The notes under the pieces were generated by a model, which worked only from the letters and a program-made list of their open reading frames with translations, did no database searches and was not told the origin of the DNA. A program made the position numbers and the translations under genes. From a virus, in IMG/VR virus record IMGVR_UViG_3300017717_000004, positions 1 through 60,901 of that record: DNA of 60,901 nucleotides. The stretch is one strand, 5' to 3'. The first letter of the stretch is position 1; the number at the start of each line of letters is the position of its first letter. This document shows, piece after piece, positions 21,801 to 60,548 of the stretch.

Positions 21801-24800
21801 AATATTAAACTCTGACAAAACCAATACTGAAAAACAGGTTGCACTCGATAATATACCTAAATTACAAGAGTCATTAAGAAGTATTCTTGCGAGAAACCCT
21901 TCTGAATTAGGTTTTCATTTATTGAACAGTAAAACACAGCAAGAGTATTTTGACAAGGCTATGAATATGATTGTGAACGAGGAAAAAGATAAAGCTGTAC
22001 AAGAGGGTAAGGGGGATGATTTTTCTATTGACCTCAGCTCAACAGACCCTATGGTTATTCAAAGAGCTGCTGAGATGTATAAAAATGAATTAGAGACAGG
22101 TCTTAGAAACAACAGAGAATCCTTTTTACCAGCATCTTCATATAATGTTTTAGACCCAACCAAGTACATGGTTGATGTGACTAGGGAGGAAATGGATAAC
22201 TTCAACATACAAGCAAGTATAGAGTCTTTTAGGTTGAAGCAATATAACGCAAAAACTCTTGACGAAAAAGGTGGGAAAAAGCCAGACAACCAAAGAGAAA
22301 ATTTAGAACAGCCTAAAGTTGAGCTAACAACTGAGGGTATTGAAAGACCTGTTACAAAAGAAGATGTTTTATTGCAGCAAAAAATAGACGAGCAACAAGA
22401 GAAAAAAGACAACCTAAAAGAAGACTCTGGTAAAAAACAAACTCTAGGCGAATATAAAACAGAATCAATAGACGACATTGTAAATATTATTGAATCGTTT
22501 GCTATAAATGAAGACTTCATGGCTTCTTTGCCTGAATACCAGCAAAAACATATTGTTAAGTTTTTTAGTGATATTGAACTAGGAAAAGACCCACAATTAG
22601 GTCATGTTAGGTCTATACTAGACTCTCATAGAATTGCTACAGACATATCTGGTAGGTCAGCAGATAAAATAGAAATATTTCAAGCACTAGGGTTTAAAAA
22701 AGACGAAATTGCAAACCTTACAGTAGAGCAAATGTACGCAAAGCTTAATTCTTTGTCTCAAAAATTTGTTACAGCAGGTTTTAATGTGGGAAGCTTTAAG
22801 ACTGGATTTGGTACAGGAGATATAATTCTAAAAACATTGTTTAGAGATAAATATGTTGGAAGTAAATTTTATGACTTATTTAGAAGGGTTAGTAGAAAAG
22901 TTGACGAAAGCAGACAAACAACAAACTTACAATACAAAGAGGCTTTAAGTTTATATGAAAAATTAGTTATAAAACAAAACTCAGAAACAGGAGGCAATAA
23001 GTCTGTAAACCCAAATGATTTAGAAAACTCCTATACTCTTTACATGTTGGCAGGCGGATTTAGGAAGTCTGGCAAAACAAATGAAAAAGGAGTTGATTTA
23101 GAGTTTAGTAGATTTAAAAGCCTTTTATCACAAGAGTTGAGGTTAAGAAAACAAGAGTTTGATTCATCTTCTGGCACAAATAAAGCAAAGTATAAAAAAG
23201 AATATGAAATGTTTAAAAGGGTTTATGATGCTCTTGGATATGAAACAGCAAATAGCTATAGTGAATTAAATGCATCTGAAGCCGATATAAATTTTATTAA
23301 GCGGGTTTCTCTTCTCCAGCCTGGAGATTTAGCCTTGCGAAGAATAACTGATTTCGGAGGCAAACTAGATAACCAAGACAGAGGAACTAGTGTTCCTTTT
23401 GTAGATGGAAGTTATATTCCGATTCCTTTGTTTAAAGGATTTGATTCATCTGGCTCAAGAACGTCGTCTAAAGACGGTGGAGAAGGTTCAAACATAAATG
23501 ACGCTTCAAACCTAATGTCCATAGAGTTTGTAGAAAACCTTTCAGAAGACCTTAGACTAAACCCAGGTATGTTTGCAAAAAATGTTTTTGACAAAATGAA
23601 TGGGGCTTTAACTGACATAAATGCAAGACAGGATGTTGTTACTTTAAAATACCTAATGGACAATCCTAGATTTCAAGAATTGTTTAGCAGTAAAAAAGAA
23701 TATGATGTTTTAGCAGCTTATTTTAAAGGAAGAGAAAAGATTTTTAATAATATTGTGGCACAAGGCAACAATAATGTAGTTGAAGTATCATCTGGCGCTA
23801 AGTATATAATTCCTAAAGTTATAAGAGCGGCTTACAGCACATGGGCGGCAAGAGCACTCGCAAGGTTAGACCAAAGACCATCTCAGTTTTATAGTGCTAT
23901 TAGTGGTACTGCTCCCTACTTAAAATCTAAGTTTGCTAAAAACCATTTAAATAGTGGAACATTTAAGTTTACAGGAGGTCTTTCTACTTTAACAAACGGG
24001 ACAAAGGCTAGAACTATTGTTGGTAAGTATATGCAAAATAGCATGTTTGGAAGGGGTGATTTATCAAATATATACTCAAAATCAAGAACAGGACTTCGTA
24101 ATGCTATTCAAGCAGAATTCCTACTTGACGAAAATCAACAAATACCAACAAGCTATTACTTAAACTTTTTAAACATAAAAGACAAAGATGGCGCCATAAT
24201 AAAAGAAGTAGGAGCTGTATCTACTTTGAACAACTTTATAGATTATATTTCTAAAGGAAGTGAGCTTTCTCTAGATATATTTTTAGCAAGTGCAGATAGA
24301 GCTGCAGCTAATGTAGCTTTTGAGTCTCATTACATAGACGCAAGAGTGAAGCAAGGGGAAAATCTTGAGAATGTTGACATGACGGCGTGGTGGAAAAAAG
24401 AAAATGAAAACCCAAATACTGATGCAATAAACGAAGCTGATGCTTTAGTTGCTCAAACCATGAGACAAACAGGTAAGTTTTCTGAAGCAGATATATATAA
24501 TAACGGAGAGACAGGTCAAAACATATTAAGAGCATTTATACCTTTTCAAAGGTTTATTACAAACGCAAGAGCAAATTTTGCTAATCAAGTAGCTATATTA
24601 AATGACCCAACCATTCCACCAAGTCAAAAATCAGAAGCTAAATCAGCTATACAAGGAATAATTCAGGAAATTATGACTTTTAAAAGTGTAAAGCTTGGTA
24701 GCGCTTTAGTTACCATGAAGGGCTTTGCTGCTGGTATATTAGGATTTGGTTTGTCTGATGATGATATTAGGAGACGTGGGGGTGTTACTCAACTTATTGG

Positions 24801-25647: not shown

Positions 25648-26093
25648 TATTTATCCTTTATTATATTAATAACTTCTTGACAGTCCTTTTGATTTCTTGG
25701 TACAAATAAATCAGTACACCATCCTTTTAGATTTATATACCTTTTAAACAACTTCCAAACCAAAGGAAATCTTTCATTTGGATTGCCTTTGCATTCTATT
25801 ATATATCTTGGGGGTACTTGAGTGTCAACAAAGTCTGGAGTGTATGTTATTGGTAGTATTTTTTTATTTCCCCTATCATGAAGATATTTTTTTGTTGGGG
25901 TTTTTTCGTAAGAAGAATGGTCTGAGAAAAATGAATCAATGATTGTGAACTTTTCAGATTCGTAACCAGCTTTAATTTTATTAGCTTTTAGAAGCAGATA
26001 CATATGAGATTCTAGTTTCGACTGAAACTGTATGCCGTCTATTTTTGTTTTTTTAGAGCGAGTTATTTGTCTTCCTTTTTTATATCTTCTCAT
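25638..26093 (-). CDS. PD-(D/E)XK endonuclease, DUF1064-like
   Basis: 151 residues. The central ITYTPDFV and the RYIIECKG strand supply the Asp and the E-x-K of a PD-(D/E)XK nuclease core, arranged as in phage DUF1064 nucleases. The upstream FQSKLESHMYLLL segment gives the conserved first helix with Glu. It is the last gene of the leftward replication arm and probably acts on branched or damaged phage DNA (recombination, junction resolution or host DNA breakdown). The exact substrate is not visible. Confidence 0.75.
   Translation of the reverse strand: MRRYKKGRQITRSKKTKIDGIQFQSKLESHMYLLLKANKIKAGYESEKFTIIDSFFSDHSSYEKTPTKKYLHDRGNKKILPITYTPDFVDTQVPPRYIIECKGNPNERFPLVWKLFKRYINLKGWCTDLFVPRNQKDCQEVINIIKDKYYL
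25940..25950 (+). repeat. TGATTGTGAAC motif copy, antisense to its gene
   Basis: Inside the leftward nuclease gene, so the motif is on the non-coding strand (the gene reads FTII here). This shows the orientation follows the genome, not transcription. Confidence 0.9.
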
Positions 26094-29838: not shown

Positions 29839-30169
29839 CTATTAATCTTATTTTCACATTAGACCACTTACCTCCTTTAATTTTGTAATCCACTAAAAAA
29901 TCTATTCTTTTAACCCACCTCTTATTCATTCTATCCTCAACAGTCCATTCTCCATCCATATCCCCTGCTCCTTCAACGCAAACCTTAGCGCCGAATACAA
30001 ATCCGTATTCTTCTAGGTCTCTTGATACAGCAATCCACCTATGTGAGCCAGGTGATTGTGAATTTATTGTTTTTAGTGATGCCGTTGTTAAATAATCGGC
30101 GTTACATTGTTTGGGGTCGGCGTGATAAATTGTAGCCGTTACCATAATTCCTAATAAAATTGTTTTCAT
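29825..30169 (-). CDS. Secreted double-psi beta-barrel (3D/RlpA-like) protein
   Basis: 114 residues. A short basic-hydrophobic N-terminus (MKTILLGIMVTATIYHA) looks like a signal peptide. The body HRWIAVSRDL ... GFVFGAKVCVEG ... MDGEWTVEDRMNKRWVKRID follows the pattern of the 3D domain of MltA and RlpA-like barrels, with the acidic EDRM in the place of the conserved Asp. Start overlaps the primase-helicase stop as ATGA. It might modify or bind peptidoglycan, but catalysis is unproven. Confidence 0.6.
   Translation of the reverse strand: MKTILLGIMVTATIYHADPKQCNADYLTTASLKTINSQSPGSHRWIAVSRDLEEYGFVFGAKVCVEGAGDMDGEWTVEDRMNKRWVKRIDFLVDYKIKGGKWSNVKIRLIDDLN
30053..30062 (+). repeat. TGATTGTGAA motif copy, antisense to its gene
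   Basis: Inside the leftward 3D/RlpA-like gene (encoded peptide NSQS). Confidence 0.9.
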
Positions 30170-31929
30170 TTGTTTATATTTAATTGTTCAAATTCTAAAT
30201 CTAAGGTTTTTGTAACCTCATAAGGGTTGTTTTTATCCTCCATCCAATTAGTGTTATCCCAAGACACGTTTCCGTTGTCCATCTCAGTATACCTACCATT
30301 GTTCACATTCCACGAAAGTTCTGTGTGTGCTTGGTTTTCACCTAGATTAGCAAACTTAACCTTCAGCACTTTAACTTTTACTGTCGCATTTTCATAATCT
30401 CTATGAACCAGAATTCCATGCGGACTCATGTCATAAAATTCCCCACCTCCTTTAACATCATAAAAAGTAGGCTCTATTAACTTACCCTTATCGTTCTGTG
30501 GTTTAGTTGGGTGTGCCACAATTATGCATATCACATCATTCTTTTTACAAAACGTATCTACTTTATTAAGGTATGCGTTTGTGTAGTCTGTAATGCTTAA
30601 GTTTAAATTGTTTTTATCCCTTATCTTGTTGTAAGGGTCAATTACAAGGCACCTTATACCCACTCTTCTGACTAATTCCTCTCCCTTTTTAAGAACCTTA
30701 TCTAAATCAAACCCATCTTCATAGTCAATAAAAAAAAAGTTTTTATTAATGTGTTCAACACATTTCTTCCAATCTTTCTTCTTTGTTTCTTCATACTTTG
30801 GAGTGTTTCCGTATATTTTCCTCACTAACTTATCTACATGTAGGTATTGTGGATAGTTTTCTGTTGAAGCGTATGCAGTTTTCCAATCATACATCATATT
30901 GTATCCTATTGTCATTTGGTCTACAAAGTCAGACTTACCGCTACTTGGAAAACCTGTAACAACTATAAATTGCTTTGTGTATGTTGAAAATATACCATCA
31001 AAACTATCTAAGCCTATTTTAAAGCCATTCTTTACACCATTTCTATAGAAATCATCAAGTTCCCCAACCATATCAGAAACCCTTAATACGTTTTCTATTG
31101 GACATGGCGTCGCATCATCAATAACTTTAAACAAAGCATCCTTACCATATTTAAGTAAATATTCGTTTGCATCCTTACAGTCTTTAAGGTCGCATAAATA
31201 AACTTTTTCTGAGCCGAATCTTCTTATTAATTCTTTCTTTCCGTTTTCACCTGCTTCATCTGAATCCACACAAATGTATATCTTCTTCTTACTCTCGAAG
31301 TGATAATAGAAATCGTTTAAATAATCTAAATTAACTTGGCCGTTTGCAGTAAAGCCATTAGGCACACTAACAACATTCTTTCTACCACATTCAACAAAAG
31401 ACAAGCAATCAATTTCACCCTCAGTTACTATACAAGTGTCAGAATCAATAATAGAATCCATATTGTAACACATCTTTCTAGCGCCCTTATATAGTTTAAA
31501 GTTTTTTTGTGAATCTCTATACTTTACATTAACAACCGTATTGTTGTATATGTAGTTAAACATTATAACTTTAACTTCTTTACTTACCTGTGGCATATAT
31601 TCAACACCCGCAGTAACACCGCAAGACTGTAGTGTTTCTTTTGATATACCTCTTGAAACAAACCAATCTAATACATTATTTGTTGGCTTATATGTCTTTT
31701 CAATTACAGGAATAACATAGTTGTCGTCTTTTGCTTTTTCATATGTGTGAAGCTGTAACACCTCTCCACAATGTTGACATGTTCCAAGACCCCTGTCCCA
31801 ATCCAACATCAAGCACTTTTGGCTTTTCTTTTTTCTTGTATGACTACACTTTGGACATGTAGACTTCTTTGCTCTTGTATCTAATTTGAATACATTGTAA
31901 TCTTTTATTTCGTAGCCGTTAATATCCAT
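30166..31929 (-). CDS. Primase-helicase (T7 gp4/Twinkle type)
   Basis: 587 residues. The N-terminal zinc-binding region has CPKC near 25-28, a Cys at 39 and CQHC at 51-54. A TOPRIM primase core follows, with VTEGEIDCLS near 168-177 and VDSDEAGENGKKE near 221-233. A RecA-like helicase comes next, with Walker A GFPSSGKSD at 326-334, Walker B LVIDPYN near 428-434 and AHPTKP near 472. It unwinds DNA and makes primers at the fork. No DNA polymerase is encoded in the window, so it probably works with host polymerase III. Start overlaps the DnaD-like gene by 11 nt. Confidence 0.93.
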   Translation of the reverse strand: MDINGYEIKDYNVFKLDTRAKKSTCPKCSHTRKKKSQKCLMLDWDRGLGTCQHCGEVLQLHTYEKAKDDNYVIPVIEKTYKPTNNVLDWFVSRGISKETLQSCGVTAGVEYMPQVSKEVKVIMFNYIYNNTVVNVKYRDSQKNFKLYKGARKMCYNMDSIIDSDTCIVTEGEIDCLSFVECGRKNVVSVPNGFTANGQVNLDYLNDFYYHFESKKKIYICVDSDEAGENGKKELIRRFGSEKVYLCDLKDCKDANEYLLKYGKDALFKVIDDATPCPIENVLRVSDMVGELDDFYRNGVKNGFKIGLDSFDGIFSTYTKQFIVVTGFPSSGKSDFVDQMTIGYNMMYDWKTAYASTENYPQYLHVDKLVRKIYGNTPKYEETKKKDWKKCVEHINKNFFFIDYEDGFDLDKVLKKGEELVRRVGIRCLVIDPYNKIRDKNNLNLSITDYTNAYLNKVDTFCKKNDVICIIVAHPTKPQNDKGKLIEPTFYDVKGGGEFYDMSPHGILVHRDYENATVKVKVLKVKFANLGENQAHTELSWNVNNGRYTEMDNGNVSWDNTNWMEDKNNPYEVTKTLDLEFEQLNINK

Positions 31930-32662
31930 TCTGTATTATTTTAAATTCAAACCCTGGTTGGTCGTAGTTTTTTTTATCTCTATTTAATTCATCTTCACTA
32001 CCTGTTTTAAGGCTTTGACCTTTCCATTTCCACTTAAAATTACCTGTGTTTTTTGCTTGGTCTTTGTTATATTTTAGCCAATTTACAAAGTGTGATTTAT
32101 AATCTTTGATTGTTATCTTTACATCATCAGTCATGGTCAAATGATTGTGAAAAATCTTCAATGTTTTTTCAAGACCATCGTTCGATATTTGATTTTGCAT
32201 ACAGACAACCTCTCTCCACGACATTCCATCAAGACATTCTTTTAGAAAAATATTATTATTATTTTCTTGTATTATTATTTTCTTATTTATGTTTGTCTTT
32301 GGCTTGTCTTTTGTTTGTCGTTTGCGTGTCGATTTCTTTTTTTGTACAGCACTTTCTATTTGATAACTATCATAGTTACAGATAGTTACCTTTGTATACT
32401 TGTTAGTCGTTTGCGTGTCGATTTCACCTGTTTTTGTAAGGCGCTTTAACGCAGTTCTTATTTGTCTTACAGGTATGTCGAGGTCTGAAGAAAGCCTGGA
32501 TAGCGAAGTTATATATTCACCTTTAGATACAGGCCTTCCCATGAAACGACAATTGTCGTAACAAGCATTTAAAAGTAAATGTATAAATAAATTTTTTGTA
32601 TTGGAGTCTTTATACCACTCCCAATCCAGAATCCTCCTGTGTAGTTTTATGTATCCCTTCAT
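31919..32662 (-). CDS. Replication initiator-like protein with N-terminal winged helix (DnaD/O-like)
   Basis: 247 residues. The N-terminus MKGYIKLHRRILDWEWYKDS and GEYITSLSRLSSDLDIPVRQ ... ALKRLTKTGEIDTQT form the classical winged-helix start of phage DnaD-like or lambda-O-like replication proteins. A basic linker and a C-terminal helical part with YKSHFVNWLKYNK resemble a DnaD-type tail. It sits directly upstream of the primase-helicase gene and would load helicase at the origin. Exact family is inferred. Confidence 0.78.
   Translation of the reverse strand: MKGYIKLHRRILDWEWYKDSNTKNLFIHLLLNACYDNCRFMGRPVSKGEYITSLSRLSSDLDIPVRQIRTALKRLTKTGEIDTQTTNKYTKVTICNYDSYQIESAVQKKKSTRKRQTKDKPKTNINKKIIIQENNNNIFLKECLDGMSWREVVCMQNQISNDGLEKTLKIFHNHLTMTDDVKITIKDYKSHFVNWLKYNKDQAKNTGNFKWKWKGQSLKTGSEDELNRDKKNYDQPGFEFKIIQNGY
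32142..32151 (+). repeat. TGATTGTGAA motif copy, antisense to its gene
   Basis: Inside the leftward DnaD-like gene (encoded peptide FHNH). Confidence 0.9.
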
Positions 32663-33182
32663 TGTTTATTCTATCTAATGTTACAACCTCGTTTACTTTA
32701 TCTGCCAATATATCAACAAGGTTTTTGTTTTCATATAAGTTTTCTGTTATCTGACTATATTTAAGCAAGAAGTTTAAATCCTCTTCTTCATATATTTTTC
32801 TTACAATTCTTTTTTTGTAAATGTTTGCTTCGTCAAACATATATTGTTCGTAGTCAGCGTAAAATTTTATTTCATTTTCTAGCTCTTGTAATTCTTTTCT
32901 AAAATCCTTATCAACGTCAGCTATATCTTTAACCACCCTAACACTATAAAGTATTGTTGCGTGATTATGGGGACTATTCCTTCCCCTAACCTTTGAATAA
33001 TCTCCGATTGCTTGTAGCGATAGTCTTGTAAATTTTTGAGCAAAATAAAAAAACATTTTTCTTAAGTCAGCAACTTCTCTTCGCCTTGTATCCCTAAACA
33101 GATACCCTTTTTCTTTGTCATGCCGCCTTTCTATTATATCTGATATAATATCAAGGGTTTTATATTGTCCTTCTCTATTCAT
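32610..33182 (-). CDS. DnaA domain IV-like DNA-binding protein
   Basis: 190 residues from ATG at 33182; a longer frame from 33260 would translate across a G7/C7 hairpin, so I prefer the internal start. Residues ~25-95 contain RRREVADLRKMFFYFAQKFT ... SLQAIGDYSKVRGRNSPHNH ... TILYSVRVV. This closely follows the DnaA C-terminal helix-turn-helix and its signature DHTTVLHA. No AAA+ ATPase is present, so this is a stand-alone origin-binding domain plus a helical tail. It overlaps the DnaD-like gene by 53 nt. Confidence 0.75.
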   Translation of the reverse strand: MNREGQYKTLDIISDIIERRHDKEKGYLFRDTRRREVADLRKMFFYFAQKFTRLSLQAIGDYSKVRGRNSPHNHATILYSVRVVKDIADVDKDFRKELQELENEIKFYADYEQYMFDEANIYKKRIVRKIYEEEDLNFLLKYSQITENLYENKNLVDILADKVNEVVTLDRINNEGIHKTTQEDSGLGVV

Positions 33183-33201
33183 TGTATTGTATTTAAGCTT
33201 G

Positions 33202-33252
33202 AGGGGGGGTAAAACTTTAGGATTATGAAACCTTATATTAACAAACCCCCCC
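33202..33252 (-). promoter_or_regulatory. G7/C7 inverted repeat in the leader of the DnaA-like gene
   Basis: Seven G residues (33203-33209) and seven C residues (33246-33252) can pair, extended outside by CTTGA and TTCAAG after a 4-nt bulge. It sits between the SSB gene and the preferred start of the DnaA-like gene, so an attenuator or mRNA-processing hairpin is plausible. Confidence 0.5.
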
Positions 33253-33269
33253 TTATTCAAGCCATTAGA

Positions 33270-33606: not shown

Positions 33607-33699
33607 TTAATTTAAGATTAATAAAATGATTATAATTATTGCATATGCAATTGTTTCAGCTATTCTACTTAGCTTTCTGTCTTTGTTAAATCTCGCCAT
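33607..33699 (-). CDS. Tiny membrane protein (30 aa)
   Basis: ATG at 33699 to TAA at 33607. A basic N-terminus (MARFNKDRKLSR) is followed by one hydrophobic helix (ETIAYAIIIIILLILN). It overlaps the exonuclease gene end by 14 nt and fills the gap to the SSB gene. A single-pass inner-membrane peptide is likely. Function unknown. Confidence 0.55.
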   Translation of the reverse strand: MARFNKDRKLSRIAETIAYAIIIIILLILN

Positions 33700-34498
33700 A
33701 GACTGTAAAATTTTCAAGTCTGTGACTTTTATTAACAAAATATTTTAAATAATTCTCTTCAGCTTTTGATACCTTTTCTCTACCTCTGTCATAGGCATCA
33801 TCAGAAACTTCATACAAACCAACACAACCTGTTCCTTTTTCAATAACAAGGAACTTCATTGGCTTTTGAAACATTGTTGAGTATATAAAGGCTTGACTAT
33901 CGTAATTATAAGCCTTGCTGCTATACTTAAAACCTCCAAGCGAACTTGATGTTTTTATATCAATCAAACAATCTTCTGTAACAATGTCTGCTTTACATTT
34001 CCATAAAACATCGCTATCTGTGTGTCCCATAGTTCCAAAATTTGGGACTTCATATTTAGATTTTTTGTTGTTTAAAAACTGCTTTACTGTTTCGTTCTTT
34101 AAAGAGGTGTCAACTAAAAGATTTAGGTCGTCCCATTCTTTTTTAAGAAAAATTAAACCACCTGCCTCAGCTGAAGCTTCTTTGTACTTATTAGTGTTTC
34201 TTGTAGAGGCTTCAATATAATTGTCGTTTTGAGTTTTTCCAAACATAATAAGTTCGTGAAAGGCTCTACCAAACATTAAATTAACACTATCTTCTCTTGG
34301 CTCAGAATACTGCGTTGGGTTGTTTATAAGCTGACTAATGTTAGAGTTTGATAAAAACTTACCACCATAGTCCCCATAATAATGCTCATCGCTTGAAAGC
34401 TTTGCCAAAACTTCTTCTCTATTTCTGTATGTCCAATGCTGTCCAGCTGTCATTCCATGTGGAGTTGAGTCCACTATGTAATCCCCTACTTTTTCCAT
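33686..34498 (-). CDS. RecE/Cas4-like exonuclease (PD-(D/E)XK)
   Basis: 270 residues. Motifs in order: NSNISQLINNPTQY (first helix), GRAFHELIM (the conserved His), CKADIVTEDCLIDIKTSSSL (D and D-x-K of the nuclease core) and YDSQAFIYSTMF (the QxxxY motif). This is the pattern of phage RecE-like/DUF3799 exonucleases that resect double-strand ends to feed a single-strand annealing protein. The gene upstream looks like that partner, overlapping by 13 nt. Confidence 0.85.
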   Translation of the reverse strand: MEKVGDYIVDSTPHGMTAGQHWTYRNREEVLAKLSSDEHYYGDYGGKFLSNSNISQLINNPTQYSEPREDSVNLMFGRAFHELIMFGKTQNDNYIEASTRNTNKYKEASAEAGGLIFLKKEWDDLNLLVDTSLKNETVKQFLNNKKSKYEVPNFGTMGHTDSDVLWKCKADIVTEDCLIDIKTSSSLGGFKYSSKAYNYDSQAFIYSTMFQKPMKFLVIEKGTGCVGLYEVSDDAYDRGREKVSKAEENYLKYFVNKSHRLENFTVYGEI

Positions 34499-34890
34499 GA
34501 CGCATCCTTTCTTTTAAAGTCGTCGCTTTCATCTTCAGAAAAGACACCCAACTCGTAAAATCCTGTTAACTTAAGCACTGCACGAGACATTGCCCTTTTT
34601 TCTGCCATTTCCATTACATACCATGTGTTGCAATTTCCGTCCCTATGACTTGTTCCTTTTAGTGCTGAACCAAAAGTTTGTATTGTGTTGCCACTTGCAT
34701 CTGCATTTGCTTTTACAACGCAGTAATTTGGTTCGCAATTTATCACATCATAAGTGATTGTGATTTTTTCAACTGCCTGGATTCTGTCAATCCCAGACCT
34801 TGTGATGATTATGTAATGTTGATGCTTGAACACATCGTCTTTGCTTAAACCATACTTTTGGTATAAGGCTTTTAGTTTATCTGTTTTCAT
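34486..34890 (-). CDS. Candidate single-strand annealing protein (ERF/RecT-like)
   Basis: 134 residues. The central beta-rich part (YIIITRSGIDRIQAVEKITI) is followed by TWYVMEMAEKRAMSRAVLKL, similar to the helix of ERF-family annealing proteins where an A-x-x-R-A pattern is conserved. The acidic C-terminus (FSEDESDDF) is also common. Overlap with an exonuclease gene is the classic layout of a two-component phage recombinase. Family is inferred. Confidence 0.68.
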   Translation of the reverse strand: MKTDKLKALYQKYGLSKDDVFKHQHYIIITRSGIDRIQAVEKITITYDVINCEPNYCVVKANADASGNTIQTFGSALKGTSHRDGNCNTWYVMEMAEKRAMSRAVLKLTGFYELGVFSEDESDDFKRKDASWKK

Positions 34891-36613: not shown

Positions 36614-36850
36614 CTATTTTTTAAAGTTTTCAATTGTAAAGTTTACTAATTCTATTATTTCATCGGAATAAAATATTGCATTAACTTTTGATAAATCATC
36701 CGAATATTTTTTATCTATACCAAAAGCATGTCGCATAATTTCTGTATGCTTATTTGCAATGTTGTCTATTACTTCATAAGTTTTTTCAAATACTTTTGAG
36801 TTTTTTTCATTGACCATAAGGTCTGAATGTAAATAATCTTTTGTTGCCAT
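36614..36850 (-). CDS. Small hypothetical protein (78 aa)
   Basis: Helical and charged, with no Cys and no membrane segment. It is the first gene of the leftward block that follows the iteron-like array and hairpin at 36.94-37.05 kb, so it may be translated from a transcript starting there. Function unknown. Confidence 0.6.
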   Translation of the reverse strand: MATKDYLHSDLMVNEKNSKVFEKTYEVIDNIANKHTEIMRHAFGIDKKYSDDLSKVNAIFYSDEIIELVNFTIENFKK

Positions 36851-36940
36851 ATTTTTATTAATTATTAACTAAGTTACGATTTTTTTTGTTGATAACCTAA
36901 AGTTTTTGTTGTTATATTCATATATTTTGCAATTTTTTTC

Positions 36941-36979
36941 TCGTCGCATCGTCGCATCGTCGCTTGTCGCATCGTCGCA
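36941..36979 (+). repeat. Iteron-like array, five TCGTCGCA-type units
   Basis: Units are TCGTCGCA, TCGTCGCA, TCGTCGCT, TGTCGCA and TCGTCGCA in direct tandem, followed without spacing by TGATTGTGAAC. The array is the most GC-rich stretch of an otherwise AT-rich gap. Scattered single GTCGCAT copies also occur on the + strand (31109, 31189, 35402, 36045, 36730, 40990). Confidence 0.9.
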
Positions 36980-36990
36980 TGATTGTGAAC
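36980..36990 (+). repeat. TGATTGTGAAC motif copy beside the iteron array
   Basis: Intergenic, directly abutting five TCGTCGCA-type units. Confidence 0.9.
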
Positions 36991-37005
36991 AACGAATGAA
37001 AGAAA

Positions 37006-37054
37006 AGAAAGTAGGGTAGCGTTTGAACTTTGTTCTTAACTACCCTATCTTTCT
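37006..37054 (-). terminator. Long hairpin, probable leftward terminator
   Basis: AGAAAGTAGGGTAG (37006-37019) pairs with CTACCCTATCTTTCT (37040-37054) with one bulged base and a ~20-nt loop. It begins at the stop codon of the small leftward gene at 37053. On the minus strand a T-rich stretch follows, so it can end the leftward early transcript. Confidence 0.7.
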
Positions 37055-37169
37055 ACTCACACGAAAGAAATATTGCAAGTATTATAACTATCCATAGCAA
37101 TATGTTTGCTATTTTGAATATTATAAATACTGCATTTGTCTTTATGCCTATCCATTTTGATTTTTTCAT
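37053..37169 (-). CDS. Tiny membrane protein (38 aa)
   Basis: ATG at 37169 to TAG at 37053. Basic start MKKSKWIGIKTN, then a long hydrophobic helix (AVFIIFKIANILLWIVIILA) and a short tail with one Cys. Lies 4 nt after the 594-residue gene and ends in the hairpin. Probably a single-pass inner-membrane peptide. Function unknown. Confidence 0.6.
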   Translation of the reverse strand: MKKSKWIGIKTNAVFIIFKIANILLWIVIILAIFLSCE

Positions 37170-37173: not shown

Positions 37174-38958
37174 TTAATTTATATATCTTACTTCTAAATT
37201 TGTTTGTGATTGAACGTATTCTTGTATTTCTTCTTGTGTACAGTCTTCGTGCATATCATAACATTCAGTACTGTCATCTTCATACTCTATTTCAAAAGTT
37301 TGTGTGTTACTTTCACTTACAAACCCTTTGATAGGACATTCGAATGCATTATGATACCAACATCCGTCATAATCAGAATAATATAGTTCATCTGTATGAT
37401 AGTAGTCTCCAGAGTCTTCATCCATAGCCATATCATCAAAATCTTCAGTTACATATCCATCTCCTTGAAGTTCAATAGCTGTTTCATATAGTATGTCTTG
37501 GTCTTGTAATTCTGAATATACTGTATCGTCATTGTGATAATAATCTCCCTCACTTTCAACCCAAACAGCGTCTTCTTGGTGAACTCTATTTCCGTCATGA
37601 AGTGTAACCATATTTTCGTCATGTGGACCACCCTCAGTTGATTCTAATGTAATATCTCCACTTGAATTACATAGTTGAATTTCATCTCCATTTAGGTCAT
37701 CAGTATATTTCATAGTGTCCATATATGGATACTTTCTGTTTTCAGAGTTTTGTAGTGTAACAGTTAATTCTTTATCCACAATAGCACCAATACTATTTAC
37801 CATACGATAATCGTGATAGTTTTGTTTGTTTTTGTGTAACCAACCATTTTCTTTTGCATATGATTGAAATTTAGCAATAGCTATATCACTACCATATATT
37901 CTATCCATAAATATATCTCCTCCATCTGTATACCATAATATAGCTCTTGCTACAGTTTTATTGTCATTATCTAAAGCCCTAACCATTTTTACTTTATCTG
38001 GATTTTCTGTGTAAATTTCAAAGTAATCTTGACATTCAATGTGTTTCATACAAGAGTTACTTAGACTACCTATGTTTACACTTTCACTATGATTTTTATA
38101 GCTGTATGTAGAAGCAATATCCATACCCTCAACAACTTCCAATTTAAAATCAAAGACATATAAAGATTTTATTGTATTTGACATTTTTTCAATTGCACTA
38201 TCAGGACAGTAAATATTAGCTTGTTGTAGCATTTTACGAATACCTTTACCGTATTTGATATTTTGTCTTGCATCCTTTATCCATTTCTGATTATTATTCA
38301 TAACAGTACGTTTGTGTTTTGGTGTATACGTCATTGTACCGTCTGCTGTGATTGTGAAATGTCTATCGTGATTTATATCATATGCGTATTTTCCTGCTTG
38401 ATGTATAGCATCTTGTACCCAATATATATTATCATCGTTTCTACTAAACCCTAATATTCTATCTGTTAGTGATGCTGACAATAGTCTTGTACCATTAAAA
38501 CTATTTGATTCATAAAACAAATTGGTGTTTTCGTACAAGTTAATTCTATTTGCGTCATACAAGTATAGCTTTTGTGCTTGATACTTTGTATTTTCTGCTG
38601 TAACTTCAGATGCAGTATCCTCATCTATAGGTCTACCGTCAGCAAATTTCTTATAGTATATAAATGTTTGACGCATATATTTTTCTCCAATCATATAGTT
38701 TTTTAAGTCTATCATTAGTCTTAATAATCTTTCTTTTGGTAATATACACATTATAGGTGTATCGTGATTTTTTCCCCAATTAGTGTAAAACATTCTGTAC
38801 ATTTCGTTTGATTTGTACACAGATGTTCTACTTCTTAGTGTGAATCGATTCAACAGAGTTACATTGTCATCTCCTTTACCGAAGTATTTTTTGTCCAAAC
38901 CACTTTTTATTATTAGTTGAACAATATCTCCTACTGATATTTCAATTTTACTATGCAT
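37174..38958 (-). CDS. Large hypothetical protein with Tyr/His/Asp repeats (594 aa)
   Basis: No family recognised. The N-terminal two thirds look globular, with one notable segment NPDKVKMVRALDNDNKTVAR ... ILWYTDGGDIFMDRIYG. The C-terminal ~150 residues are strongly acidic and contain three related units: EGDYYHNDDTVYSE, SGDYYHTDELYYSD and DGCWYHNAFECP, like a small repeated metal- or ligand-binding motif. The composition is unlike the AT-driven Lys/Asn-rich neighbours. It precedes the peptidase gene's product in the same operon (2-nt gap), so the two may act together. Confidence 0.6.
   Translation of the reverse strand: MHSKIEISVGDIVQLIIKSGLDKKYFGKGDDNVTLLNRFTLRSRTSVYKSNEMYRMFYTNWGKNHDTPIMCILPKERLLRLMIDLKNYMIGEKYMRQTFIYYKKFADGRPIDEDTASEVTAENTKYQAQKLYLYDANRINLYENTNLFYESNSFNGTRLLSASLTDRILGFSRNDDNIYWVQDAIHQAGKYAYDINHDRHFTITADGTMTYTPKHKRTVMNNNQKWIKDARQNIKYGKGIRKMLQQANIYCPDSAIEKMSNTIKSLYVFDFKLEVVEGMDIASTYSYKNHSESVNIGSLSNSCMKHIECQDYFEIYTENPDKVKMVRALDNDNKTVARAILWYTDGGDIFMDRIYGSDIAIAKFQSYAKENGWLHKNKQNYHDYRMVNSIGAIVDKELTVTLQNSENRKYPYMDTMKYTDDLNGDEIQLCNSSGDITLESTEGGPHDENMVTLHDGNRVHQEDAVWVESEGDYYHNDDTVYSELQDQDILYETAIELQGDGYVTEDFDDMAMDEDSGDYYHTDELYYSDYDGCWYHNAFECPIKGFVSESNTQTFEIEYEDDSTECYDMHEDCTQEEIQEYVQSQTNLEVRYIN
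38349..38358 (+). repeat. TGATTGTGAA motif copy, antisense to its gene
   Basis: Inside the leftward 594-residue gene (encoded peptide FTIT). Confidence 0.9.
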
Positions 38959-38960: not shown

Positions 38961-40115
38961 TTATAATTTTTTAAGTTTGTTATCATCTTCATAAAACCTG
39001 TTACCGTCTATATCAGCATTAACATTGTCGATAATTGTATCTTCAATAGTATATAGTTCTTCTATATCGACGGTTTCCATATGTTTTTCATCTATAATGA
39101 AATCATCATACTCAACATCAACACTTGTATGACAGTTCATACAGTAACATACGTCATCATATTCTTCGTACCATACTTCGTGAGCACCACAGTTAGGACA
39201 CTCTGTTTGTAGTTTACTTGTCCCAATTGTGTCGTGTACATTAGATTTTTGTGATTGTGAATTATCCCAAGCATCTTTGCTGTATCCGTCATAGTAGAAA
39301 TCATCATAATAGTCATAACCACGCCCATATGCTCCATACATAGCTGGTGAATATGATATGCGATTCCCCTCGATTTCATATCTGATACCGTCTTGATTTA
39401 CTTTGTCAAATATTTCAATACACATTTGTTTTGTTGCATTTACTTCACTTATTACAATGTATTCATTGTCTGTGTGTGGGTCGTAATATCCACAAGACAT
39501 ATTAGCAACTTGAACTTTTGTTTTTTCTGCTATTTCTCCAACGTCAGTAATACCACCAGCACAACATTTACGATTGTATTTTTTTAGTATACTTTCTATT
39601 GACTCTTGAAAGCTTTCGTCTGATAGTTTAGTGCCAGAAATACTTGTCACAAAATCATCAATACCACGTCTATCACATTCCAACACAACGTTGCTGTCGG
39701 CAAAGAAACTGAAGTCAGCTTGACTTGAACCTTTGCAACCAACTTCTTCGTCTTTGAAAAAGACAGCTTTGAAGTTATCATAGTGTTGTAATAGTGATAG
39801 TGTGATATAAACGCCAACTTTGTCATCTCCACCAATACCATATCTTTTACAGTTTGTTCTGTCAATAGCAAGTAGCTTGTCGTCAATTTTGACAAGTTCG
39901 ATGTTGTTGTTGATGTCGTGAACAGTATCAATATGGCATACCATTGTTGGATATAAATCTGCGTCGCCTTTTGCAACATAGATGTTACCATAGTTGTCTG
40001 TTGTGAAGTCAAGTTTCATACTTCTGACTTTCTTCTTGATGAATGATTCCATTCTGTGGGACTTGTACGATTCTGTTTGGATTCGCATTGTGTCCAGTAA
40101 TAAATTGTTTTTCAT
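38961..40115 (-). CDS. M20/M42-like metallopeptidase with C-terminal zinc ribbon
   Basis: 384 residues. Peptidase-T-like motifs appear in order: MVCHIDTVHD (H61-x-D63), IGGDDKVG (metal Asp near 97), FKDEEVGCKGS (catalytic Glu pair 123-124), VLECDRRG (Asp near 148) and YYDPHTDNEY (His near 214). This is the order in M20 di-zinc peptidases. A Tyr/Gly/Asp-rich linker (~258-280) then leads to a zinc ribbon CPNC ... CMNC (306-309, 325-328) and an acidic tail. Probably an intracellular peptidase or amidohydrolase; the substrate is unknown. The fused ribbon is unusual for the family. Confidence 0.8.
   Translation of the reverse strand: MKNNLLLDTMRIQTESYKSHRMESFIKKKVRSMKLDFTTDNYGNIYVAKGDADLYPTMVCHIDTVHDINNNIELVKIDDKLLAIDRTNCKRYGIGGDDKVGVYITLSLLQHYDNFKAVFFKDEEVGCKGSSQADFSFFADSNVVLECDRRGIDDFVTSISGTKLSDESFQESIESILKKYNRKCCAGGITDVGEIAEKTKVQVANMSCGYYDPHTDNEYIVISEVNATKQMCIEIFDKVNQDGIRYEIEGNRISYSPAMYGAYGRGYDYYDDFYYDGYSKDAWDNSQSQKSNVHDTIGTSKLQTECPNCGAHEVWYEEYDDVCYCMNCHTSVDVEYDDFIIDEKHMETVDIEELYTIEDTIIDNVNADIDGNRFYEDDNKLKKL
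39252..39261 (+). repeat. TGATTGTGAA motif copy, antisense to its gene
   Basis: Inside the leftward peptidase gene, in its linker (encoded peptide NSQS). Confidence 0.9.
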
Positions 40116-40138
40116 TGTGTGAGTTTATTAATTGTTGT

Positions 40139-40345
40139 CTACTCTTTAAGGTTTTCGACTGCCCCTATTTTGTTTTGTAGATTTAGTAAGGCTAACTTGT
40201 AACCATAGTTCTTAGCTAATTGCATTAGCAAAAAGTCATTACTACCGTTGTTTGCTTTTGCGAATTCATTTAGATATTCTTCTGTAGGTGTAGCTACTAT
40301 ACTCTTGTTCAGTTTTTCTAATTCTTTTCTGATATATTTTTCCAT
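40139..40345 (-). CDS. Small hypothetical protein (68 aa)
   Basis: Helical, with a charged start (EKYIRKELEKLNKSIVATPT) and a Leu-rich end. Located 23 nt before the peptidase gene and 4 nt after a membrane protein gene. Function unknown. Confidence 0.6.
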   Translation of the reverse strand: MEKYIRKELEKLNKSIVATPTEEYLNEFAKANNGSNDFLLMQLAKNYGYKLALLNLQNKIGAVENLKE

Positions 40346-40349: not shown

Positions 40350-40655
40350 TTATATTTTCATTGTGTGATAATATTGTATAAAGCTTGTTGTATATAGCGC
40401 ACCAATAAATAACCAAACAGGCGAAGTGAATAGTATTTGTGTTGTTGAAAAACTACTTATGATATGTGATAGTAGCGCCATACTACTAAACACAAACAAC
40501 CAATACATAAATGATATGAATACTTTCATATATGTGTTGAGGTTTAGATTTTCTGTTGTCGTACTATCAGCTATAGTGATTGTGATTGCACCGTTCCTAC
40601 TTTTTTTCTGAACGGTTGTGATGCCTGTAGGCAAAGTTTTAGTGATTGTTTTCAT
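40350..40655 (-). CDS. Two-TM membrane protein (101 aa)
   Basis: A hydrophilic Thr-rich N-terminal ~40 residues, then two hydrophobic helices (VFISFMYWLFVFSSMALLSH and ILFTSPVWLFIGALYTTSF) with a short hydrophilic connection. Size and topology fit a holin- or superinfection-exclusion-type membrane protein, but the location in the early leftward arm speaks against a holin. Function unknown. Confidence 0.62.
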   Translation of the reverse strand: MKTITKTLPTGITTVQKKSRNGAITITIADSTTTENLNLNTYMKVFISFMYWLFVFSSMALLSHIISSFSTTQILFTSPVWLFIGALYTTSFIQYYHTMKI

Positions 40656-41078: not shown

Positions 41079-41435
41079 CTATTCAGGTCTTTCTTCAGCC
41101 AAACGGTCAACCACTTCTTCTACTGTGGATTCACGTTCTTCTGTTGCAACTAAGAAGCCTAACTGACTGAACACGCTATCAGGTGTGTTCAAGACTGGCT
41201 CTTCTGCTACTGCATCCATTTTCTTTTCAAACAACCACTCTGGAATTGTTACTTGTACCAATTTCTTTTTGGCATCAACAATGCTGAGTTGTGATTGTGA
41301 TTTAGGCATATACACTCTATCAAATAATTTAGTGTTACCTTGTTTGCAGTTCGATAAAACAATTGCTTTACCTGAAGCGTGAATTTCCACTAATGTGGCT
41401 TTGAATGTTACTGTTGTTGAATTTGAATTTTTCAT
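41079..41435 (-). CDS. Hypothetical protein (118 aa)
   Basis: Beta-rich first half (TTVTFKATLVEIHASGKAIV; KLVQVTIPEWLFEKK) and an acidic C-terminus (ERESTVEEVVDRLAEERPE). First gene of the leftward arm after the divergent region. Could be a small nucleic-acid-binding (OB-like) or regulatory protein, but this is only a guess from shape. Confidence 0.6.
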   Translation of the reverse strand: MKNSNSTTVTFKATLVEIHASGKAIVLSNCKQGNTKLFDRVYMPKSQSQLSIVDAKKKLVQVTIPEWLFEKKMDAVAEEPVLNTPDSVFSQLGFLVATEERESTVEEVVDRLAEERPE

Positions 41436-41468
41436 TTTATGTATATTTAAAAATTAATACCCAACGAA

Positions 41469-41663
41469 TACAAATGCTTACTTGATATAACCGAGGCCAG
41501 ACTTCAATTGTTTTCAAATATTTTCATGAAAGGCTTTAGCCGCTTCGAAAAAATTTTAAAAGAATTTAAGCTGGGTTGAAAACTTGCCAAGCTTCGATAA
41601 AATTTTTAATCAAAAATTTTTCAAGGTTGAGCAACCGAAGGGGATACCAAGTAAGCATTTGTA
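41469..41663. other. Structured element bounded by a 16-bp inverted repeat
   Basis: TACAAATGCTTACTTG (41469-41484) is exactly reverse-complementary to CAAGTAAGCATTTGTA (41648-41663). Inside are smaller self-complementary parts, for example GGTTG-AG-CAACC (41624-41635) and an AAAATTTTT-rich pair. It may be the leader of the leftward transcript, a structured RNA, or a regulatory DNA element. I do not recognise a known RNA family. Confidence 0.55.
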
Positions 41664-41775
41664 AATTTGTATGGGATTTTTAATACATAAAATAAAATTC
41701 CAACGGCAGTAATATTCAATTCCATAATAGAAATTCAGGCATTCAAGTGAAGTGATTGTTCGGACTGCATACAAA

Positions 41776-41802
41776 TCTATCTATCTATCTATTTATTTAT
41801 TT
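41776..41802 (+). repeat. Tetranucleotide repeat (CTAT/TTAT)
   Basis: About seven tetramer units, ATCT repeated then ATTT repeated, ending just before a TGATTGTG variant of the genome-wide motif. Prone to slippage; sits in the non-coding divergent region. Confidence 0.85.
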
Positions 41803-42041
41803 GATTGTGTGTATGGCTTAACCAATCACAGCTCTATCTGATGAACCAAAAAGGAATACCAACAAGTGACAATAACAGAGTTGTCGATTAATAAAATGGG
41901 TGTAGTAGTATATGCAAGTCCTGACAACAGCTGATGACTTTCATACAGTTATGGTTATTAGTGACATAAGGTTGTGAAACCAACAGTTGAAGTGGTGACA
42001 TTATGTTTAGGTGAAAGACAAGGATAGGATAGGTTATCGAA

Positions 42042-42051
42042 TGATTGTGAA
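42042..42051 (+). repeat. TGATTGTGAA motif copy in the divergent non-coding region
   Basis: Non-coding copy within the divergent region; single-mismatch relatives TGATTGTGAT occur nearby at 40577 and 41292 and also at 34754. Confidence 0.9.
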
Positions 42052-42103
42052 TACGAGCATTACCATTGGGATGAAGGGGGTGGGTATAGGAAGGGGTGCC
42101 AAA

Positions 42104-42120
42104 GGATACCGTAGGTATCC
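42104..42120. other. Small perfect hairpin GGATACC-GTA-GGTATCC
   Basis: A 7-bp stem with a 3-nt loop, flanked by two GCCAAAG copies (GCCAAAG before and CGCCAAAGC after). Could be an operator or a small RNA stem within the divergent region. Confidence 0.5.
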
Positions 42121-42359
42121 GCCAAAGCGAGAGAGGCGAAGCCGAGCGAGCGAGATAGATAGTATTTGTAAATTGACATAGGTATAGAAAAAAGCTAAAA
42201 AAAATAGAGTAATGAACGGATAGAAACAACCCCCATATAATATATAAATCAATTTACATAACGATAGTGTAGGTAAAAAATATAGATTACCTAAAACCTC
42301 AGCATATGCGTGGCGTATTTTTGAAAACAGTTAAAGTAATATAAATAGGTCATCATTAG

Positions 42360-42407
42360 TTTACATTATTGCGCCACATATTTACATCGGATAATTAAGT
42401 ATATTTG
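42360..42407 (+). promoter_or_regulatory. Rightward promoter region with shared 20-bp element
   Basis: TTTACATTATTGCGCCACAT (42360-42379) recurs at 42740 with one change. TATATTTG (42400-42407) fits the -7 box, 14 nt before the ATG at 42422. Likely starts the rightward early transcript. Confidence 0.6.
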
Positions 42408-42421
42408 TAAAAAATAAAGTT

Positions 42422-45208: not shown

Positions 45209-45913
45209 ATGGAAACCCCTTTTATTTTTAAAGGGGATGATTATCTGTATTTTCCAGAAGGAGTTGATTTTTACAGTTTATATAGAACAAAAAGAAAGAT
45301 AAATTCTTTTTCAGAACTTGAATATATTGCAGAGAAGTTTATTCATTTAAACCCTGAATTTAAACTATCTCTAATGACCTCTTTATTTAAAATTCTATCA
45401 GACAGAGACTCTGGACACATAATTAGAACATATACCTCATTAAGGGTTGAGGCTATGGTCACAAGAGTTTACAATAAGAAAAAGGTGCCCTATTGTAAGA
45501 GAAAAAGAAAAATAATATTCAACCCCTCTAAAATGATTGATAGAAAAACTAAAATGAAAATAGTTGGCTCTATTATTGGGACAAAAAAAAGACCTACTAG
45601 CTCAGAGATTGACCAAGTTATTGAAGAGATGTGGCTTGAAAAAGAAAAGATTACACTAATAAAAGTAGCAAAAAAACTTCACACATCAAGATATCTTGTT
45701 TCTTGGTACTTTAATGAAGAAACAAAATCATCAATCAAAAAAGCTAATCTAGATATTAAAAACGAAAATTTAATAAGTAGAGCGATAGAAGCTATTGATT
45801 TTTTAACAGACAAAGGCAACGCACTGAAGATGAGAGAGTTAAAAAAAATAACCTCTATAAGAAACTATTCTCTATTAAAAAAGGCAGTTTTTATGTATCA
45901 GAATGAAGATTAG
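45209..45913 (+). CDS. Putative DNA-binding protein with helix-turn-helix (234 aa)
   Basis: ATG at 45209 chosen, 22 nt after the groES stop; an upstream frame start would overlap groES. Basic. Residues ~165-190 (KITLIKVAKKLHTSRYLVSW) read as a helix-turn-helix, preceded by TSSEIDQVIEEMWLEKE, so a regulator role is plausible. The C-terminus overlaps the convergent gene by 23 nt. No firm family. Confidence 0.6.
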   Translation: METPFIFKGDDYLYFPEGVDFYSLYRTKRKINSFSELEYIAEKFIHLNPEFKLSLMTSLFKILSDRDSGHIIRTYTSLRVEAMVTRVYNKKKVPYCKRKRKIIFNPSKMIDRKTKMKIVGSIIGTKKRPTSSEIDQVIEEMWLEKEKITLIKVAKKLHTSRYLVSWYFNEETKSSIKKANLDIKNENLISRAIEAIDFLTDKGNALKMRELKKITSIRNYSLLKKAVFMYQNED

Positions 45914-46367
45914 ATGCGTTCATTTTTTCAATAACCTTTTTATATATCTTATCAGCATAAGATGTCTTTTTGAATATAGGGTTAGAACGAGGCTCTTCTG
46001 ATATAGGCTCGTCATTCATAAGTTTTTTATAAGTAAGCAAACATATTGTTTTTGCTTTATGTGTAAGCTCCCATATTTTTGCTCTTCCATACTTCTCACC
46101 TCCAGGTCTCCATTCTTTTATTAAATCTTTTTTTACCATTTCATAAAACCTTCTTTTATCCCAAGACATTGTGTTTCCGTAATAATTAAAATCTTCTTTT
46201 CTGAAATAAGGTAGGTCATACAAATAAAGCAACATATCTAACTCCATTGAACTTATGTTATATTTTCTTTTTATGTAATATTTCACAACCCTCCAATACT
46301 TTAAAAAATTATATTGTCTTTCTCTAGGTTGTCTTTTAATAATTTTTCTTTTATAAGATTTTATCAT
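45891..46367 (-). CDS. Winged-helix regulator candidate, leftward
   Basis: 158 residues from ATG at 46367. After a basic N-terminus, YYIKRKYNISSMELDMLLYL, FRKEDFNYYG, KRRFYEMVKKDLIKEWRPGG and RAKIWELTHKAKTI follow the helix-helix-wing order of MarR/PadR-like proteins. It is the only leftward gene in the rightward arm and sits back to back with the promoter of the structural gene at 46443, the usual layout of an autoregulated switch. Confidence 0.7.
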   Translation of the reverse strand: MIKSYKRKIIKRQPRERQYNFLKYWRVVKYYIKRKYNISSMELDMLLYLYDLPYFRKEDFNYYGNTMSWDKRRFYEMVKKDLIKEWRPGGEKYGRAKIWELTHKAKTICLLTYKKLMNDEPISEEPRSNPIFKKTSYADKIYKKVIEKMNASNLHSDT

Positions 46368-46410
46368 AGATTTAATTATTTGGGTCAAAAATACGAAAAA
46401 CATTTTTTGG

Positions 46411-59990: not shown

Positions 59991-60548
59991 ATGCAATCTC
60001 CGTATTATTTTATAGTCAAACCACTTGGTTCTGAGTATAATAATGAGATTGAAATCGCTGGTCAGCAAGTGATTGTGAACTCGACTGTCGAGAATCACGA
60101 GCATGTCAATAGACACGCTGAGATTATTTATGTGCCACAAAGACATAAAGGAGAGATATCAAAAGGCGATTCAATTATTGTTCATCACAATATATTTAGA
60201 ATATATTACGATATGAAGGGTAACCCAAAAAAATCACCTAACTATTTTAAGGACGGATTATATTTTATAGATGAGTTTCAGTTTTATCTATATAATAACG
60301 GAAAACAATGGAATGCCGTTGGAGACAATTGTTTTGTAAAGCCAATCACAAAAGAAGACACTTATTTATATGAAGATTCTTTAGAAGATAATACTGGTGT
60401 AATTGCTTATGATAATTACAATTTAAATAAATTAGGTGTTTTTAAAGGCGACAAAGTAAACTTCAGAAAAAATAGTGAATACAAATTTACTATAGGCGAC
60501 GAAGTTTTGTATAGAATGAAAACTAATGATATATGCGCAATATTATGA
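59991..60548 (+). CDS. Second GroES-fold candidate (185 aa)
   Basis: The N-terminal half shows a GroES-type layout: YYFIVKPLGSEYNNEIEIAG, VIVNSTVENHEHVNRHAEII and RHKGEISKGDSIIVHHN, where the last segment matches the GroES strand around a buried basic loop and the stretch before it would be a mobile loop. The rest (residues ~80-185) is not in standard GroES and is rich in Tyr, Asn and Asp. It could serve the phage GroEL as a gp31-like cap for a large capsid protein. Contains a TGATTGTGAAC copy. Inference only. Confidence 0.5.
   Translation: MQSPYYFIVKPLGSEYNNEIEIAGQQVIVNSTVENHEHVNRHAEIIYVPQRHKGEISKGDSIIVHHNIFRIYYDMKGNPKKSPNYFKDGLYFIDEFQFYLYNNGKQWNAVGDNCFVKPITKEDTYLYEDSLEDNTGVIAYDNYNLNKLGVFKGDKVNFRKNSEYKFTIGDEVLYRMKTNDICAIL
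60070..60080 (+). repeat. TGATTGTGAAC motif copy
   Basis: Inside the GroES-fold candidate gene, sense direction, encoding VIVN. Confidence 0.9.

What the first reader, a model, noticed from the sequence alone, without database searches (positions are those of the whole stretch)
36851..37054. Candidate origin: AT-rich stretch, five TCGTCGCA-type units, oriented motif and hairpin
A single 200-bp gap combines an AT-rich segment, a tandem iteron-like array, one copy of the genome-wide oriented motif directly abutting it, and a 13-bp hairpin. The phage encodes a DnaA-domain-IV-like protein, a DnaD-like protein, SSB and primase-helicase but no polymerase, so it needs an origin that recruits host machinery. 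The hairpin may instead simply be a terminator.
Basis: partly seen in the sequence, partly recalled or inferred. Interest (0 to 1): 0.72.

Follow-up and report, generated by a model that had tools for sequence, protein, structure and literature searches.

The report
Conserved iteron-promoter gap with strand-locked motif
A 200-base gap in a marine flavobacterial phage is a conserved control region upstream of its DNA-replication genes, and it carries one copy of a 9-base signal that occurs on only one DNA strand of these phages and gets steadily rarer with distance from a single starting point, which suggests that something reads the genome in one direction.

Summary
The gap (36851-37054) holds an 83% AT segment, five TCGTCGCA-type units, one TGATTGTGA abutting them, and a hairpin.

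Relatives refine the reading. The architecture recurs upstream of the replication operon in about nine loci: terminator hairpin, TTCACAATCA (x1-2), 3-6 same-strand GCGAC units, then a flavobacterial promoter (TAnnTT[A/T]G). So the AT-rich segment is at least partly a promoter, and the hairpin is most likely a terminator. The exact 8-mer is not conserved; the GCGAC core is.

Origin at the gap is possible but unproven (about 0.3). Detrended GC skew has its minimum at 41.9 kb. The oriented motif is densest at the 41.4-42.4 kb divergent region, not at 37 kb.

The larger discovery is that motif:
- The window has 14 copies on one strand, 0 on the other.
- The family has 203 sites (138 distinct flanks), 0 on the opposite strand.
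- Copies keep their strand inside oppositely transcribed late genes.
- Spacing grows around the whole circle (Spearman 0.92-0.95, three genomes).
- 8 of 8 alignable sites are conserved in one relative (background 9-mers: 10.6%).

It is not a host Chi (247 host-class genomes) and breaks the orientation rule of L5 stoperators. Two cousins have graded GTGTC-N6-GACAC palindromes.

The parts
36614..36850 (-). First gene downstream of the gap (78 aa, predicted long helical hairpin, not a helix-turn-helix); conserved in motif-bearing relatives, no match in the motif-less ones compared
36869..36876 (-). -7 promoter box TAACTTAG (TAAATTTG in one subclade), 18-25 bases before the start codon
   Evidence: consensus TAnnTTTG in PMC9723704
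36887..36895 (-). Conserved TTAT[C/T]AACA inside the AT-rich segment (one mismatch from a DnaA box; also part of the promoter spacer)
36897..36900 (-). -33-like TTAG (TTTG in L016), 20-nt spacer to the -7 box
36941..36980 (-). Five same-strand ATGCGAC-type units (read TCGTCGCA on +)
36980..36988 (-). Polar motif TCACAATCA (TGATTGTGA on +) at the gap
37006..37054 (-). Terminator-like hairpin, -21.6 kcal/mol, z -6.1; different hairpins with T runs at the same place in relatives
37053..37169 (-). 38-aa membrane-type ORF whose stop abuts the hairpin
41436..42421 (.). About 1 kb non-coding divergent region: GC-skew minimum and starting point of the motif gradient
42042..42050 (-). First copy of the polar motif, in conserved TTCACAATCATTCGATArCC..CCTATCC
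41292..41300 (-). Polar motif copy
40577..40585 (-). Polar motif copy
39252..39260 (-). Polar motif copy
38349..38357 (-). Polar motif copy
34755..34763 (-). Polar motif copy
32142..32150 (-). Polar motif copy
30053..30061 (-). Polar motif copy
25940..25948 (-). Polar motif copy in the last early gene (DUF1064), conserved in G002, G004 and G005
21968..21976 (-). Polar motif copy, antisense inside a late gene
18899..18907 (-). Polar motif copy, antisense across the start codon of the 2249-aa late gene
8808..8816 (-). Polar motif copy, antisense in a late gene, conserved in G002
60070..60078 (-). Polar motif copy, antisense in a late gene, conserved in G004 and G005
30166..31929 (-). TOPRIM primase-helicase
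31919..32662 (-). DnaD-like helicase loader
32610..33260 (-). DnaA-domain-IV-like protein, candidate binder of the GCGAC array or the motif
33686..34498 (-). Exonuclease VIII-like nuclease
45891..46403 (-). 170-aa protein against the local gene direction, conserved across the family, its relative annotated 'repressor' in MW202828; alternative binder

Best explanation
The gap is the conserved control junction at the head of the phage's leftward replication operon. Read leftward it is: a terminator ending the upstream small genes, a polar TCACAATCA mark, a cluster of same-strand GCGAC iterons, and a host-type promoter for the operon that makes the recombination proteins, the DnaA-like and DnaD-like proteins and the primase-helicase. 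Shown: architecture, conservation, strand and position. Inferred: a phage DNA-binding protein (best candidate the DnaA-domain-IV protein) assembles on the GCGAC iterons to control firing of the replication operon, possibly opening DNA there as well. The TCACAATCA copy is one member of a genome-wide series of all-or-none polar marks, read by something that travels one way (leftward) from the divergent region near 42 kb. Shown: strand lock, graded spacing, conservation. Inferred: that a travelling machine reads them.
For: Same order of elements in L010, L012, L014, L016, L020, L021 and L029; motif plus array also in L022 and L026. GCGAC occurs 59 times in the 60 nt downstream and 4 times upstream of 111 distinct motif sites. 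The -7 box TAnnTT[A/T]G precedes the same gene in 11 of 11 sequences examined and matches the sigma-A consensus of Flavobacterium (PMC9723704). A hairpin with a T run but unrelated sequence sits at the same place in relatives. Motif: 14:0 in the window, 203:0 across oriented family sequences, with extra selectivity at both flanks. 8 of 8 alignable sites are kept in G002 against 10.6% for all 9-mers. Spacing rises with distance round the circle, Spearman 0.945, 0.92 and 0.94. Late copies are antisense, 14 of 14 placed in open frames in four genomes.
Against: In L022 and L026 (contigs G004 and G005) the array lies in a coding frame about 350-400 bp from the promoter, which is awkward for a simple operator. 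No binding partner is demonstrated. G009 has the replication genes without array or motif, so neither is needed for this kind of replication. Eight-base spacing is tight for independent double-strand binding. The window terminator has an interrupted U tract.
Confidence: 0.5

Rival explanations
1. The gap is the phage replication origin: GCGAC iterons bind an initiator, the AT-rich TTAT[C/T]AACA segment melts, and DnaD-like and primase-helicase proteins are loaded there.
For: Iterons on one strand next to an AT-rich segment with a conserved near-DnaA box, directly upstream of the initiator and loader genes. In G005 and G004 motif-plus-GCGAC modules recur inside coding sequence of the replication operon, a DNA-level role.
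Against: Detrended skew minimum is at 41,877 and skew does not change at 37 kb (confounded by gene direction). The motif gradient starts at 42 kb. The conserved AT-rich part is explained by a promoter. G009 keeps the replication genes without the array.
Confidence: 0.3
2. The polar motif copies are stoperator-like sites: a phage repressor bound to them blocks leftward RNA polymerase, shutting off early genes and stopping antisense transcription into late genes.
For: Density is highest next to the presumed early promoter. Cluster A mycobacteriophages have 20-30 asymmetric, polar repressor sites with subcluster-specific sequences (PMC6550527, PMC9283540), and here cousins have different sequences. 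There is no gap between the convergent blocks at 25.6 kb.
Against: Stoperators follow the direction of transcription, whereas late copies here are antisense. Sites lie inside genes and are all-or-none exact rather than a degenerate operator. Cousin sites are palindromic. No integrase was seen among the proteins scanned, though not every protein was scanned.
Confidence: 0.3
3. The polar motif copies are host Chi sites that protect a rolling-circle tail or DNA end near 42 kb from RecBCD or AddAB.
For: Geometry fits: a nuclease entering at 42 kb would meet the densest, correctly oriented sites first. Lambdoid phages concentrate Chi near their origins and packaging sites (PMC3784561). The recognition is exact.
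Against: TGATTGTGA is not enriched in 7 Flavobacteriales/Polaribacter genomes or 247 genomes of the class (at most about 0.03 per kb against 0.23 per kb in the phage). Cousins use palindromes. The phage has its own exonuclease.
Confidence: 0.06
4. Strand lock is avoidance of head-to-head sites of a Type III-like restriction system.
For: Known cause of one-orientation sites in some phages (recalled, not checked here).
Against: Avoidance explains orientation but not about 45-fold excess over expectation, graded spacing or site conservation.
Confidence: 0.03
5. The array is a neutral simple repeat in a spacer behind a terminator.
For: Unit length and number vary among relatives (8, 12, 14, about 20 bp).
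Against: GCGAC core, strand, position after TCACAATCA and clustering (59 versus 4) are conserved while the rest diverges.
Confidence: 0.1

Closest known systems
Iteron/promoter control regions of replication operons (lambda ori/oR-type, plasmid Rep iterons)
   Same: Same-strand direct repeats next to an AT-rich segment and the promoter of the replication genes
   Different: Repeat core is only 5-7 bp with irregular spacing of 7-20 bp; array follows a separate genome-wide polar motif; no binding shown
Chi sites in recombinase-less lambdoid phages (PMC3784561)
   Same: Exact short asymmetric motif, over-represented, concentrated near a presumed origin
   Different: Not enriched in host-class genomes; present on one strand of the whole genome with none on the other; replaced by palindromes in cousins; phage encodes its own exonuclease
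Stoperators of Cluster A mycobacteriophages (PMC6550527, PMC9283540)
   Same: About 14-30 dispersed asymmetric sites per genome, polar, sequence differs between subgroups
   Different: Here orientation follows the DNA strand, not transcription; sites lie inside genes; exact rather than degenerate
KOPS/AIMS-type polar marks of bacterial chromosomes (recalled)
   Same: Strand-locked, density gradient along the replicon
   Different: One polarity round the whole circle rather than two replichores; 9-bp exact motif in a 60-kb phage

Membership tests
Replication origin (iteron type) | Tandem same-strand repeats beyond chance next to an AT-rich segment | tested here: met
Replication origin (iteron type) | Array conserved in relatives at the same place | tested here: met
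   core and position in about nine loci; exact unit not conserved
Replication origin (iteron type) | Strand-composition switch at the site | tested here: not met
   detrended skew minimum at 41,877, no change at 37 kb; confounded by gene direction
Replication origin (iteron type) | Initiator binds and unwinds; autonomous replication | not testable with these tools
   needs binding assays and minireplicons
Flavobacterial sigma-A promoter | TAnnTTTG -7 box with upstream TTG-type box about 20 nt away, just before the gene | tested here: met
   TAnnTT[A/T]G in 11 of 11 sequences, perfect TAAATTTG in three; TTAG-N20 in the window
Host Chi site | Over-represented in the host genome | tested here: not met
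   (actual host unknown, class sampled)
Host Chi site | Attenuates RecBCD or AddAB | not testable with these tools
   biochemistry needed
L5-type stoperators | Dispersed asymmetric sites, subgroup-specific consensus | tested here: met
L5-type stoperators | Orientation follows transcription | tested here: not met
   late copies antisense, 14 of 14
L5-type stoperators | Mostly in short intergenic spaces | tested here: not met
   most copies lie in coding frames, all three phases in early genes
L5-type stoperators | Homologous repressor, temperate phage | tested here: inconclusive
   no such repressor or integrase hit among the proteins scanned; not every protein was scanned
DnaA domain IV protein | DnaA DNA-binding fold | tested here: met
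   Bac_DnaA_C E 4.7e-7, 1.3 bits below the curated cut-off; TIGR00362 C-terminal match; Foldseek 3pvp, 1j1v
Intrinsic terminator | G+C-rich hairpin followed by U tract, after a stop codon | tested here: met
   U tract interrupted in the window

The most novel reading that the evidence does not exclude
A subgroup of flavobacterial podophages marks its circular genome with exact, one-strand, 9-bp polar signs (TCACAATCA) whose spacing grows steadily from the divergent region round the whole circle, with cousins using graded GTGTC-N6-GACAC palindromes instead. A phage-encoded machine moving one way (unidirectional or rolling-circle replication, end processing, or packaging) reads them, and the gap at 37 kb is where one mark is fused to the initiator iterons. 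This would be a phage-specific directional signal not described before.
Probability: 0.3. Interest if true: 0.85.

Novelty: new variant of a known kind. Interest (0 to 1): 0.62.

Why it matters
The gap gives a defined target for how these abundant marine flavobacterial phages start replication, with relatives showing which bases matter. The strand-locked, distance-graded motif is unusual: strict strand exclusivity over about 200 sites, in oppositely transcribed genes too, implies a one-way process acting on phage DNA. It can be tested with one phage and site-directed changes in a laboratory host.

Tried and rejected
Exact TCGTCGCATCGTCGCAT scan of IMG/VR: one hit on a 101-kb contig with no copy of the polar motif in the fetched stretch. 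Counting TCGTCGCA in relatives first suggested that the array is absent; looking for the GCGAC core corrected this.

Host Chi: rejected by counts in class genomes. Type III restriction avoidance: explains orientation only. Codon or peptide cause of the motif: rejected, because early copies occur in all three phases and late copies are antisense, where the other two frames need stops or Cys. In contrast, the strand bias of isolated GCGAC follows coding sense in both gene blocks, so only its clustering is meaningful.

The 20-nt inverted repeat at 41469-41663 looked like a rival origin structure but is not seen in the aligned relatives. The 78-aa protein after the gap is a helical hairpin, not an obvious DNA-binding fold. 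Comparing gene content of motif-bearing and motif-less relatives did not single out a reader protein. Motif search in elemoC, phi10:1, G009 and G010 found nothing comparable. Paper search for strand-specific phage motifs found nothing.

Full report
WHAT WAS CHECKED. The window is an IMG/VR virus record of 60,901 bases. Its terminase is 63% identical to that of MW202828 and more distant from those of Flavobacterium elemo phages. The gap lies between a 38-aa ORF (37053-37169, -) and a 78-aa gene (36614-36850, -), both leftward. AT-rich stretch, array, motif and hairpin are all present and exceed chance.

RELATIVES OF THE GAP. A scan with the primase-helicase gave 33 loci. Reading the gap in those that reach it shows one architecture: stop codon of a small gene, a hairpin with T run (sequence not conserved), TTCACAATCA once or twice 24-26 bp apart, 3-6 GCGAC units on the same strand (typically GATGCGAC, spacing 7 to about 20 bp), an AT-rich block TTAGGTTAT[C/T]AACAA...TAAnTTAGTTAA, and the start of the 78-aa gene. 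TAAnTTAG is TAAATTTG in three relatives, matching the sigma-A -7 box TAnnTTTG of Flavobacterium (PMC9723704). In L022 and L026 the motif-array module sits about 350-400 bp upstream of the promoter inside an open frame, and further small modules occur in the 78-aa and SSB-position genes. GCGAC occurs 59 times in the 60 nt after 111 distinct motif sites and 4 times before them. The array is therefore conserved in kind, although the exact TCGTCGCA is not.

THE POLAR MOTIF. TGATTGTGA occurs 14 times on + and never on - in the window, and no shuffle comes near. It is the most strand-exclusive over-represented 9-mer in the window, G002 and G005, and among the top in G004. Across the window, the primase loci and further family contigs there are 203 sites with 138 distinct flanks and none on the other strand; the wider consensus is [T/A]TCACAATCA[T/C/a]. 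Contig-wide counts agree: 97:0 in ten records, and 15:0, 10:0, 6:0 and 4:0 in further ones. Early copies are sense to their genes in all three phases; late copies are antisense, because late genes run the other way while the motif keeps its strand. G002, G004 and G005 are colinear with the window. Of the window sites that can be aligned, 8 of 8 are kept in G002 (all 9-mers: 10.6%), and 3 of 4 in each of G004 and G005 (7.5%). Measured from the copy in the divergent region (42042) in the direction of TCACAATCA, spacing rises steadily round the circle: 750, 715, 1325, 903, 1369, 2225, 2613, 2089, 4113, 3972, 3069, 10091, 9639. Spearman is 0.945; G005 gives 0.92 and G004 0.94. No site lies in the 18 kb on the other side. 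Copies keep their polarity past the half-way point, which does not fit two symmetric replichores.

COUSINS. MW202828 has 14 exact GTGTCGTTAACGACAC, starting in its divergent region and dense in its early genes, several about 20 bp before start codons. G011 has 17 GTGTC-N6-GACAC with spacing that again grows leftward from its divergent region through early and into late genes. G009, G010, an elemo phage and phi10:1 have nothing comparable. G009 nevertheless has DnaA-, DnaD- and primase-like genes.

ORIGIN OR NOT. The skew test favours 41.9 kb, but skew follows gene direction here and is weak evidence. The motif gradient starts at 42.0 kb, not at 37 kb. The AT-rich segment has a sufficient explanation as a promoter. 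For an origin: iterons, a near-DnaA box, position above the loader genes, and modules that persist inside coding sequence. I give about 0.3 to an origin at the gap and 0.5 to a replication-operon control region, which may overlap.

WHAT READS THE MARKS. Host Chi is unlikely. Stoperators are the closest regulatory analogue, but their sites follow transcription (PMC6550527, PMC9283540), which fails here. Chi in lambdoid phages is the closest replication analogue (PMC3784561). The exactness of the motif (few one-mismatch variants) resembles sites read by a travelling enzyme more than a degenerate operator; this is inference. The DnaA-like protein has a DnaA domain IV fold and keeps an [N/D/H]HA[T/S/A] signature in place of the bacterial DHTT (the bacterial signature is from memory), so it may bind a changed box. 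The family-wide 170-aa protein at 45891-46403 is a second candidate.

LIMITS. No read depth, transcripts, host identity or binding data. Contigs are metagenomic. Sites in homologous positions, and overlapping stretches of the same contig, are not independent, so the 203 sites and 138 flanks are not independent events and the counts are not probabilities.

Noticed in passing
Whole window; 14 TGATTGTGA positions listed in parts: Strand-exclusive, distance-graded 9-bp motif; larger than the finding given.
   Followed up: yes
L121 43745-50000 and L122 (MW202828): 14 exact copies of a 16-bp palindrome GTGTCGTTAACGACAC with graded spacing from the divergent region.
   Followed up: partly
L158-L160 (G011): 17 GTGTC-N6-GACAC palindromes, spacing growing leftward from the divergent region into late genes.
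   Followed up: partly
41469-41663: 20-nt inverted repeat (95% complementary, 155-nt loop) in the non-coding divergent region; not seen in the aligned relatives.
   Followed up: partly
40136-40168 (-): Rfam DUF805b RNA match, 32.5 bits, E 8e-6, just under the gathering score.
   Followed up: no
40841-40915 (-): tRNA-Glu(TTC) gene.
   Followed up: no
45164-45913 (+): 249-aa protein next to GroES with a weak RinA-like (late transcription activator) match, E 0.0012.
   Followed up: no
43169-45186 (+): Phage GroEL and GroES, conserved in synteny across the family.
   Followed up: no
L121 42896-43220: GC-rich CGCGAC-type low-complexity array beside the divergent region of MW202828.
   Followed up: no
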